Shown here piece after piece: positions 42,522 to 45,402 of a DNA stretch of 45,402 nt. The notes under the pieces were generated by a model. It was not told the DNA's origin and ran no database searches. It worked only from the letters and a program-made list of their open reading frames with translations. Source of the DNA: Prevotellaceae bacterium. Lineage in GTDB: Bacteria; Bacteroidota; Bacteroidia; Bacteroidales; UBA932. Both the position numbers and the translations under genes were made by a program. Position 1 is the stretch's first letter; each line of letters begins with the position of its first letter. The DNA lies in NCBI GenBank assembly GCA_031278545.1, contig JAITKF010000008.1:1-45402 (forward strand), given 5' to 3'.

Positions 42522-44612
42522 ATGCAATTATCAACAATATTAAAGGATTCGGATTACAGACATGCACAATTTGACTTGACGCTGATTTATGAATTTGAGC
42601 AGCGTATCGTCGTGCGTACCGATAATAAAGGAAAGGAAACGCCTTATATTAATTGTCTTATCCGCAAAAAGGAGATTCGACTTACGCCCGAAGAAGTTAT
42701 CAGGCAACTTTATCTCGAAATTTTATTAAAAGACTACAAGTATCCTGCCGACCGCATCGAGTTGGAATATGCCGTTACTTTCGGACGGGAGAAAAAACGC
42801 GCCGACATTGTAATTTTCGATAAGGATAATACAATTGCGCCTTACATCATCGTTGAGATGAAAAAGCCGAAGTTGAAAGACGGCAAAGAACAGTTGAAAT
42901 CCTACTGCAACGCTACCGGAGCGCCTATCGGCGTGTGGACAAACGGCGATTCTATCTCGTTTTACCACAGGCGCGACCCCAATTATTTCGAGGACATTCC
43001 CAACATCCCGAAAGCCACTGAAAAACTGTCCGATATTTTATCGGAACGCTGGACAATCAAAGATTTAATAGCACGCGACAAGTTGATAAACGAACGGAAA
43101 TCTTTAAAAGGATTAGTGCTTGAAATGGAAGACGAGGTATTGGCAAATGCGGGCGTCGATGTGTTTGAAGAGCTTTTCAAGTTGATTTTTACGAAATTAT
43201 ACGACGAAATGCAGAGTGGACGCGACAGCGCCCGTCATTTGGAATTTCGGAATTACGGAGATACGGAAACCGAGCTTAAAAACAAAATACAGGCTCTCTT
43301 CGACCGTGCAAAAGAAAAGTGGGAAGGCGTTTTCAGCGAAGACTCCAAAATTATGCTTACTCCCTCGCACCTTTCCGTTTGCGTGGCTTCGTTGCAGGAT
43401 GTGAAACTGTTCAATTCAAATCTGGAAGTGGTCGACGAAGCCTTTGAATACCTCATCAACAAACGAAGCAAAGGCGAAAAGGGACAATATTTTACGCCCC
43501 GCTATGTAATCGACATGTGCGTGAGGATGCTTAATCCCAAAGCGTCGGAAACAATGATTGATACGGCTGCCGGAAGTTGCGGTTTTCCGGTACACGCCAT
43601 TTTTTATGTTTGGGAACAAATCCTGAAAAGTAAAGGACTGGATAAAAGTCATCTGTTTACTTTGGAAAATAAGCCGCAGAAATGTACCGACTATGTGAAC
43701 AGCAAAATTTTTGCGATAGATTTCGACGACGACGCTGTTCGCGTTGCCCGCACGCTGAACCTGATTGCAGGCGACGGTCAAACAAATGTGCTGCATTTGA
43801 ATACGCTCGACTATGACCGCTGGTACGAAAAAACAGGCGATGACAAAAAGCCGGGCGATTCTGTCTGGATTGATACTTACAATAACGGTTGGAAGAAACT
43901 CAAAAAGTTGCGAAACGAAAAAGAAAGCAATCACGGTTTCGGGTTTGATATTCTCATGGCCAATCCGCCGTTTGCGGGCGATATAAAGGAAAGCCGCATT
44001 CTTGCAAAATATGAACTGGGTAAAAACGCCGCCGGAAGATACCAGACAAAGGTGGGACGCGATATTTTGTTTATCGAGCGCAATCTGGATTTCCTGAAAC
44101 CCGGCGGACGAATGGCAATCGTGTTGCCGCAAGGGCGTTTCAATAACAGTAGCGACAAGTATATCCGCGAGTTTATCGCCGAACGTTGCCGTATTCTGGC
44201 GGTAGTCGGCTTGCACGGGAATGTTTTCAAACCGCATACCGGCACAAAAACCAGCGTGCTGTTTGTTCAGAAATGGGATGATGAGTTGTGTCCGAAACGT
44301 GAAGATTATCCCATCTTTTTTGCAACCATGCAAGAACCCAGCAAAGACAATAGCGGCGAGAAAATTTATGTACGCAAACGAGACGTCGCAAAATATAAAT
44401 TGACGCCGCAATACAGGCAGGAAGAATTAGTTTTACAGGAACCTGCGGTTGAATATGTCGCCAATCCCAAAAATCTGGACGATTATGCACTCGACTTGCA
44501 CGGTCATTTGATTGTGAAACACGACCTTTTCAACCACGACGGACTAACCGCCGATGGTATCGCGGAAGCGTTTATCGAGTTTGCCAAAAAGGAGCGACTA
44601 AGTTTTTTTTAG
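42522..44612 (+). CDS. N-6 adenine DNA methyltransferase with N-terminal HsdR_N-like nuclease domain
   Basis: nuclease-like 'RADIVIFDKDNTIAPYIIVEMKKPK' (D...ExK); MTase 'KGQYFTPRYVIDMCVRML', 'DTAAGSCGF', catalytic 'NPPF'. Confidence 0.92.
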   Translation: MQLSTILKDSDYRHAQFDLTLIYEFEQRIVVRTDNKGKETPYINCLIRKKEIRLTPEEVIRQLYLEILLKDYKYPADRIELEYAVTFGREKKRADIVIFDKDNTIAPYIIVEMKKPKLKDGKEQLKSYCNATGAPIGVWTNGDSISFYHRRDPNYFEDIPNIPKATEKLSDILSERWTIKDLIARDKLINERKSLKGLVLEMEDEVLANAGVDVFEELFKLIFTKLYDEMQSGRDSARHLEFRNYGDTETELKNKIQALFDRAKEKWEGVFSEDSKIMLTPSHLSVCVASLQDVKLFNSNLEVVDEAFEYLINKRSKGEKGQYFTPRYVIDMCVRMLNPKASETMIDTAAGSCGFPVHAIFYVWEQILKSKGLDKSHLFTLENKPQKCTDYVNSKIFAIDFDDDAVRVARTLNLIAGDGQTNVLHLNTLDYDRWYEKTGDDKKPGDSVWIDTYNNGWKKLKKLRNEKESNHGFGFDILMANPPFAGDIKESRILAKYELGKNAAGRYQTKVGRDILFIERNLDFLKPGGRMAIVLPQGRFNNSSDKYIREFIAERCRILAVVGLHGNVFKPHTGTKTSVLFVQKWDDELCPKREDYPIFFATMQEPSKDNSGEKIYVRKRDVAKYKLTPQYRQEELVLQEPAVEYVANPKNLDDYALDLHGHLIVKHDLFNHDGLTADGIAEAFIEFAKKERLSFF

Positions 44613-45402
44613 ATAGCCCTTTCGACGAAGCAAAGTATAAAGCGCTGTTGGAAGGGCTGGAGGTAAGCGAGGTTTGGTTGAGTGAAATAGAGAATATTTA
44701 TATGCGGCTGGATAGCAACTATTATAGCAGAAAGAATATACTCGTTAATTTGAACTTAATAAGAAATGATAATTGCAAAACCATAGAACAAATTGCTTTT
44801 GTCGCAGATGGCGATCATTCCAAATTTCCATGCAATCAACCGCAAGAAATCAGATATTTACAAGCAAAAGATATAAAAAATCATTTTATAGAAAATGATA
44901 AACCTGTTTTTGTAGGCAAGAAATATTTTGAATCGCAAGAACGATCTCATATTCATGAAGAAGATGTGATTTTATCAATAATGGGTAGTGTAGGTGATAT
45001 AGCAATACTTCCAAAAGGATTTAAGCATTGTATTGCTAACAGAGCAGTTGCAATAATAAAACAAATACATGATGTAAGCCCTTATTATTTATTTGCATTT
45101 TTATCTTCAAGTATTGGATTACAACAGATAGATCAGCAAAAAAATGGAGGTATCCAGCAACGAATTAATCTTGATTTATTATCGAAAATCAAAGTCCCTA
45201 TACCATCTATTTCTTTTCAGAATAAAATAGAAACTAATATTAAAAAAGCTCATTTAAAGCGCGAACAATCTCAAATCCTCTACCGTCAAGCCGAAGAATT
45301 GCTTTTAGAAACCATCGGCTTAAAAGATTTTCAACCTTCGCGAGAAGGAAAGAACATCAAGAGTTTTAAAGAATCTTTTCTTTCAACAGGGCGGCTGGAT
45401 GC
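44603..45402 (+). CDS. HsdS-type specificity region in the -1 frame relative to the MTase (continues beyond window)
   Basis: open frame FFLDSPFDEAKYKALLEGLEVSEVWLSEIENIYMRLDSNYYSRK...GGIQQRINLDLLSKIKVPIPSISFQNKI...SFLSTGRLD; target-recognition plus coiled-coil layout; only internal ATG is at 44702. Confidence 0.85.

What the first reader, a model, noticed from the sequence alone, without database searches (positions are those of the whole stretch)
44601..44620. T8 tract at the MTase/HsdS junction: phase-variable switch or -1 frameshift
Seen in sequence: the methyltransferase frame reads AGT TTT TTT TAG (44601-44612). The -1 frame is open across and beyond this point (TTA GAT AGC CCT...) and reads as a natural continuation LDSPFDEAKYKALLEGLEVSEVWLSEIENIYMRLDSNYY into an HsdS-type recognition domain, with no ATG until 44702. 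Nine T's, or -1 slippage on the canonical U UUU UUU heptamer next to the UAG, would fuse the nuclease-like, MTase and specificity regions into one polypeptide. Established: homopolymer slippage phase-varies Type I and Type IIG RM genes, and U UUU UUU is a known -1 slippery site. Which mechanism operates here is inference; sequencing error is a live alternative.
Basis: partly seen in the sequence, partly recalled or inferred. Interest (0 to 1): 0.78.

Follow-up and report, generated by a model that had tools for sequence, protein, structure and literature searches.

The report
Ribosomal frameshift in a restriction-modification gene
A family of bacterial DNA-defence genes carries a conserved signal that appears to make some ribosomes slip back one base, so one mRNA yields both a free enzyme subunit and the same subunit fused to its DNA-targeting part, in the ratio the enzyme seems to need.

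Summary
The T8 tract and the open -1 frame are real (44603-44610). They are not a phase-variable switch or an assembly error. They are the slippery heptamer of a conserved programmed -1 ribosomal frameshift (PRF) signal between a nuclease-methyltransferase (RM) gene and its specificity (S) reading frame. In every relative fetched whose S lies in the -1 frame (78 loci, about ten phyla, many isolates), the RM frame ends on a canonical heptamer: U_UUU_UUU 48, U_UUU_UUC 10, or the unrelated G_GGA_AAG/A 20. Run length varies (6-8 T) by substitution, with constant spacing, never by indel. About five bases downstream lies a 12-14 bp hairpin with recurrent compensatory changes. In 61 of 71 loci S has no start codon near the junction. 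In frame-fused relatives, five of five with an intact junction read TTT TTT GAN plus a hairpin, so a -1 slip gives UGA at once: the frames are swapped and both products are kept, as in dnaX. Relatives with S in a separate gene lack both signals. Best model: PRF makes free RM and RM-S for an (RM)2S Type IIB-like enzyme. Frameshifting itself has not been measured here. In the papers held I found no earlier report of PRF in a restriction-modification system.

The parts
42522..44612 (+). RM gene: PD-(D/E)XK nuclease domain (HSDR_N_2, 42687-43010) plus N6-adenine methyltransferase (43425-44396); 0-frame product of 696 aa ending ...LSFF
   Evidence: motif RADIVIF...IIVEMKKPK and NPPF present
44603..44609 (+). 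slippery heptamer U_UUU_UUU in the RM frame (AGT TTT TTT); the T run extends to 44610
   Evidence: canonical heptamer at the same place in all 78 relatives with S in the -1 frame
44610..44612 (+). 0-frame stop UAG, directly after the heptamer; ends the free RM product
   Evidence: the stop lies 0, 3, 21 or 27 nt past the heptamer in relatives
44614..44659 (+). stimulatory hairpin: arms 44614-44627 and 44646-44659, 14 bp, 18-nt loop; 4-nt spacer 44610-44613 (about 5 nt where the outermost weak pair is absent)
   Evidence: MFE -22.7 kcal/mol, z -3.6; 93.8% of cells paired over 73 sequences; 36 cells changed on both sides against 16 by shuffling
44609..45402 (+). S (HsdS-type specificity) frame, -1 relative to RM, read only after slippage; cut by the contig end (about 480 aa and two TRDs in complete relatives)
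   Evidence: single-nt codon differences in the loop are 68% synonymous in this frame against 17% and 8% in the others
44648..44650 (+). TTG codon inside the 3' arm of the hairpin; the kind of start that RefSeq assigns to S in the E. coli relative. Judged not to be the main start.

Best explanation
The junction is a programmed -1 ribosomal frameshift signal. Ribosomes translating the nuclease-methyltransferase (RM) gene reach the heptamer U_UUU_UUU, meet a stable hairpin about 5 nt downstream, and a fraction slip back one base. Those that do not slip stop at UAG and release free RM. Those that slip read SFF-LDSPF... on into the S frame and make an RM-S fusion. S has no conserved start of its own, so nearly all S is made fused to RM. 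One free RM plus one RM-S would give the (RM)2S stoichiometry of Type IIB enzymes such as BsaXI. Shown by sequence and comparison: heptamer, hairpin, covariation, coding of the -1 frame from the slip site, lack of conserved starts, frame-swapped fusions. Inferred: that slippage occurs, its efficiency (I expect tens of percent, possibly near 50%), and the assembly.
For: (1) All 71 loci of the first set with S in the -1 frame end RM on a canonical heptamer, plus 7 later distinct loci. The heptamers found, U_UUU_UUY and G_GGA_AAR, are among the efficient E. coli classes (PMC4066793). (2) Hairpin: z -3.1 to -5.8 in the loci tested, z +0.6 and +1.2 in two relatives with separate S; compensatory changes giving all four Watson-Crick combinations at columns 24:57 with no unpaired sequence, at least 11 changes of pair state on the tree. 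(3) Gly GGG 72 of 72; the -1 frame is under codon selection from the slip site. (4) 61 of 71 loci have no ATG/GTG/TTG in the -1 frame up to the SPF motif. (5) Five frame-fused relatives read TTT TTT GAN, so a -1 slip gives UGA immediately, with hairpins that in four of them are of new sequence. (6) Relatives with separate S lack the signal and have their own ATG. (7) EcoKI M-S fusion needs added free HsdM in vitro (PMC3510504); BsaXI is (RM)2S (PMC11997821).
Against: No frameshift product has been measured. The hairpin arms are coding, so part of the conservation is protein constraint. L019 and L020 keep the element but have T5 and S in the +1 frame. An upstream Shine-Dalgarno stimulator is not conserved (36 of 71). 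U_UUU_UUU is weaker than A_AAA_AAG in E. coli (PMC5009743). The predicted structure of a natural fusion was low-confidence (pLDDT 63.5).
Confidence: 0.92

Rival explanations
1. Termination and re-initiation: S is translated as a separate protein from a weak start (TTG 44648 inside the hairpin, or ATG 44702) coupled to the RM stop, as EcoKI hsdM/hsdS are coupled.
For: TTG or another start lies 36-39 nt past the slip site in most loci; RefSeq annotates S from such a TTG in E. coli; coupling is real in EcoKI (PMC3510504).
Against: The -1 frame upstream of that TTG is under codon selection; the stop moves 0 to 27 nt; the heptamer is universal and replaced by a different heptamer; no such start in L024 and L030; frame-swapped fusions need no re-initiation.
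Confidence: 0.05
2. Transcriptional slippage on the T8 run adds a U in some mRNAs and fuses the frames.
For: T runs are slippery for RNA polymerase; runs of 9 A or T are cited for this (PMC5009743).
Against: 20 loci have GGGAAAG/A and 10 have only T6C at the same site with the same hairpin; a spaced, covarying RNA hairpin is not needed for it.
Confidence: 0.02
3. Phase-variable homopolymer: replication slippage between 8 T and 9 T switches the fusion on and off.
For: A homopolymer sits at the junction; homopolymer tracts phase-vary other RM genes (general knowledge).
Against: No 9-T or other indel state among 78 loci; 73 junctions align over 72 columns with no gap; the tract is replaced in 20 loci; the three E. 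coli genomes are identical there.
Confidence: 0.01
4. Assembly error or pseudogene: the real gene is an in-frame RMS fusion.
For: The window is a MAG contig, and in-frame fusions exist in some relatives.
Against: Same frame relation in isolates and complete genomes of several phyla; both frames under selection.
Confidence: 0.01

Closest known systems
dnaX (tau/gamma) programmed -1 frameshifting
   Same: In-frame slippery heptamer plus downstream hairpin, giving a short and a long form of one protein in a set ratio; both frame arrangements (long form in frame, or long form by frameshift) occur in nature (PMC5009743, PMC3711429).
   Different: Different gene; heptamers U_UUU_UUY or G_GGA_AAR instead of A_AAA_AAG; no conserved upstream Shine-Dalgarno stimulator; here the shifted frame encodes a whole DNA-recognition subunit.
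Type IIB restriction-modification enzymes (BsaXI, BcgI)
   Same: Nuclease plus methyltransferase in one RM chain with a separate two-TRD S unit and no HsdR gene seen; BsaXI RM is the closest solved sequence (E 1e-25) and works as (RM)2S (PMC11997821).
   Different: BsaXI was reconstituted from separate RM and S chains (PMC9159934 abstract); here S appears to be made only as an RM-S fusion by frameshifting. The nuclease domain is HSDR_N_2 type.
EcoKI hsdM/hsdS junction and the engineered Type IMS fusion (PMC3510504)
   Same: M and S overlap in different frames; an M-S fusion works together with free M.
   Different: EcoKI uses translational coupling with its own S start, and its fusion was man-made; here the overlap has heptamer and hairpin and lacks a conserved start.
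IS3-family transposase frameshifting
   Same: The same heptamer classes, including G_GGA_AAG and U_UUU_UUC, with downstream structures (PMC4066793).
   Different: Mobile element gene, not an RM system.
MADS (MAD2/MAD5)
   Same: Homologous N6-methyltransferase and S subunit.
   Different: Score 311 against a cut-off of 720; separate ATG-started S and extra genes in the MADS-like loci checked.

Membership tests
bacterial programmed -1 ribosomal frameshift signal | X_XXY_YYZ heptamer in the upstream reading frame near its 3' end | tested here: met
   78 of 78 loci with S in the -1 frame
bacterial programmed -1 ribosomal frameshift signal | downstream RNA structure at a short spacer (about 5-9 nt) | tested here: met
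   hairpin starting 4-5 nt after the heptamer, covarying
bacterial programmed -1 ribosomal frameshift signal | -1 ORF open and selected from the slip site, without a start of its own | tested here: met
   (61 of 71 without a start; the other ten have a TTG, formed by the TGA stop)
bacterial programmed -1 ribosomal frameshift signal | upstream Shine-Dalgarno-like stimulator (optional) | tested here: inconclusive
   SD-like word in 36 of 71
bacterial programmed -1 ribosomal frameshift signal | frameshift product made in cells | not testable with these tools
   needs a reporter assay or mass spectrometry
phase-variable homopolymer switch | tract length varies by indel between strains | tested here: not met
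   no indel state among 78 loci; spacing constant
translationally coupled overlapping genes | start codon of the second gene at or next to the first stop | tested here: not met
   absent in 61 of 71; met in the separate-S relatives
Type IIB restriction-modification (BsaXI/BcgI) | nuclease and N6-methyltransferase in one chain with a two-TRD S, no HsdR | tested here: met
   S of about 480 aa
Type IIB restriction-modification (BsaXI/BcgI) | cleavage on both sides of a bipartite site; (RM)2S assembly | not testable with these tools
   biochemistry needed
MADS MAD2 | NCBIfam NF047738 score above cut-off | tested here: not met
   311 against 720

The most novel reading that the evidence does not exclude
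A restriction-modification family in which a -1 frameshift near 50% sets a 1:1 supply of free RM and RM-S, so that every (RM)2S enzyme is covalently asymmetric (one RM carries S) and free S scarcely exists. This would be selected strongly enough that the slippery heptamer has been replaced by an unrelated one several times, and that gene fusions keep the slippery site and a hairpin in swapped frames to go on making free RM.
Probability: 0.6. Interest if true: 0.9.

Novelty: new variant of a known kind. Interest (0 to 1): 0.84.

Why it matters
Most programmed -1 frameshifts known in bacteria are in transposable elements or phages (PMC4066793), with few cellular cases such as dnaX. This would be a broadly distributed case in a DNA-defence enzyme. 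It explains a class of split RM/S annotations (RefSeq starts S at a TTG inside the hairpin), suggests a general solution to M2S-type stoichiometry, and gives a rare comparative set in which frame roles are swapped. It also warns against treating every homopolymer at an RM junction as a phase switch, and predicts that cloning RM and S as separate genes would misjudge these systems.

Tried and rejected
Phase variation: tract lengths and spacing across 78 loci reject it. Sequencing error: rejected by isolates and complete genomes. Transcriptional slippage as the general mechanism: rejected because of the GGGAAAG and T6C variants. MADS membership: below cut-off. Type I system with a nearby HsdR: no ORF of that size and place seen within about 6 kb in the loci examined, though not every neighbour was scanned. 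Shine-Dalgarno stimulator: not conserved. Known RNA family: no Rfam match (best is a chance tmRNA hit, E 0.74). The element elsewhere in genomes: the RNA model on 399 genomes of the phylum found only the gene family and one weak hit (L106), judged chance. A structure model of the natural fusion L067 was of low confidence; only its S and nuclease parts are usable. The 2011 survey of Sharma et al. (PMC3199440) is not held, nor were supplements readable, so earlier listing of such a cluster cannot be excluded.

Full report
1. Observation. The methyltransferase ORF 42522-44612 ends AGT TTT TTT TAG, with eight T at 44603-44610. The -1 frame from 44609 reads LDSPFDEAKYKALLEGLEVSEV... and is open to the contig end at 45402. 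The first ORF has a PD-(D/E)XK domain of HSDR_N_2 type and an N6 methyltransferase domain; the -1 frame has a Methylase_S domain. The window is one whole contig of a 79%-complete MAG, so S is cut.

2. Relatives. A scan of one genome per species gave 80 relatives at 68-83% identity of the best segment. In 69 of these, plus the window and L003 from the same family, S lies in the -1 frame relative to the RM stop, and all 71 have a canonical X_XXY_YYZ heptamer in the RM frame at the same place: T_TTT_TTT 42, G_GGA_AAG 19, T_TTT_TTC 9, G_GGA_AAA 1. The other 11 of the 80: four in-frame fusions (L063, L067, L079, L083), one fusion with the first recognition domain deleted (L046), one separate S (L056), two with S in the +1 frame (L019, L020), one whose RM frame is broken upstream but whose element is intact (L055), two that end before the junction (L037, L081). 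Seven further distinct loci with the same arrangement came from a K. pneumoniae plasmid (the same sequence in three E. coli chromosomes), other genomes, viral contigs and a phage record, making 78.

3. Why it is not phase variation or error. The T run is 8, 7 or 6 long, but by substitution: 73 junctions align over 72 columns without a gap. No 9-T state was seen. In 20 loci the tract is absent and G_GGA_AAG or G_GGA_AAA stands in its place. Isolates and finished genomes show the same frame relation (titles).

4. The hairpin. Starting 4-5 nt after the heptamer, 44614-44627 pairs with 44646-44659 (14 bp, MFE -22.7 kcal/mol, z -3.6). Over 73 sequences 93.8% of cells pair; 36 cells changed on both sides against 16 expected by shuffling (0 of 500 as high); sliding the partner strand gives 35-62% paired. 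Column pair 24:57, the third base of the conserved Pro codon against the codon before GGG, is UA 58, CG 9, UG 3, AU 2, GC 1, with no unpaired case. Pair states change at least 11 to 27 times on the protein tree for the varying pairs, and in tree-independent comparisons the partner almost never goes the wrong way, though single-pair sign tests are too small for significance. Caution: both arms are coding, so part of the conservation is protein constraint; the covariation at third positions is the cleaner evidence.

5. The -1 frame is translated from the slip site. In loop codons outside the helix, single-base codon differences are 68% synonymous in the -1 frame, 17% in the 0 frame and 8% in the +1 frame. 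Gly is GGG in 72 of 72. In 61 of 71 loci no ATG, GTG or TTG lies in the -1 frame between the last upstream stop and the SPF motif; the ten exceptions are TTG formed by a TGA stop. The first ATG is a median 213 nt downstream. The 0-frame stop itself moves from 0 to 27 nt after the heptamer, which does not fit a stop-start coupling signal.

6. Frame-swapped fusions. L063, L067, L079, L083 and the Picosynechococcus plasmid pAQ6 gene (L085) encode RM-S in one frame, and each reads TTT TTT GAN at the junction, so a -1 slip meets UGA at once and releases RM ending LSFF. All five have strong hairpins just downstream (z -3.3 to -5.8); in four these have sequences unrelated to the common hairpin. On the tree the fusions need at least two separate changes, and the two heptamer types at least four. 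Gene fusion did not abolish the slippery site; it exchanged the roles of the frames, as is known for dnaX.

7. Negative controls. Relatives with S in a separate gene (L091, L094, L095, L096, L098 and the more distant L087-L089) have an ATG for S at or near the RM stop and lack the signal; two separate-S loci folded (L098, L056) have no hairpin (z +1.2 and +0.6). An RNA model of the element finds the held-out insertion-bearing members and no separate-S relative, apart from one E 0.21 match on the opposite strand. In 399 genomes of the phylum it finds the frameshift members (three of which were in the model) and one weak chance hit.

8. How it most likely works. Inferred from the above: ribosomes that stay in frame make free RM; those that slip make RM-S. 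PMC4066793 lists H_HHU_UUY and V_VVA_AAR heptamers as the efficient ones in E. coli, with G_GGA_AAG among the top three with a stimulator. An engineered EcoKI M-S fusion needed added free HsdM for activity in vitro. BsaXI, the closest solved relative, is an (RM)2S trimer. One RM plus one RM-S gives that composition; this would suit an efficiency near 50%, and the existence of swapped frames points the same way, but efficiency has not been measured.

9. Novelty. Searches of the held papers for frameshifting with restriction-modification found no report of PRF in an RM system. One paper tested and did not see frameshifting in a C-protein/REase fusion (PMC3850674). The GeneTack survey text does not mention RM genes among its frameshift clusters. 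The 2011 Sharma survey and supplements could not be read, so an unremarked listing is possible. I file it as a new variant of a known kind: -1 PRF is known, RM enzymes of this layout are known, the combination appears new.

Noticed in passing
L017:9541-10182, L030:9553-10386, L038:9547-10380, L057:9451-10239, L080:10157-10789, L086:9371-10162: A small third ORF (210-277 aa, with a motif like SDIDYI..I.AWI.FN.WY in several) follows S in many loci; no Pfam or PADLOC family, only a weak NCBIfam SA1320 match. It may be part of the system.
   Followed up: partly
L019:8067-8137, L020:8064-8134: Two related Bacteroidales MAGs keep the hairpin element but have T5 and S in the +1 frame, without a heptamer; a +1 or -2 shift, or decay, is possible.
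   Followed up: partly
L101:5468-5515 and L086:7935-7982: E. coli (3 of 5426 genomes) and K. pneumoniae carry the T7 form with the 0-frame stop 27 nt after the heptamer; RefSeq annotates RM and S as two genes, S from a TTG inside the hairpin.
   Followed up: yes
L071, L080, L084 (S frame): S frames of 725-739 aa instead of about 480, perhaps with three recognition domains.
   Followed up: no
L079:7980-8050: The hairpin after the slippery site in this Methylococcales fusion looks like an inserted repetitive palindrome; a mobile palindrome may have supplied a new stimulator.
   Followed up: no
L046:7918-8109: Elusimicrobiota member with RM fused directly to the second half of S, the first recognition domain deleted.
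   Followed up: no
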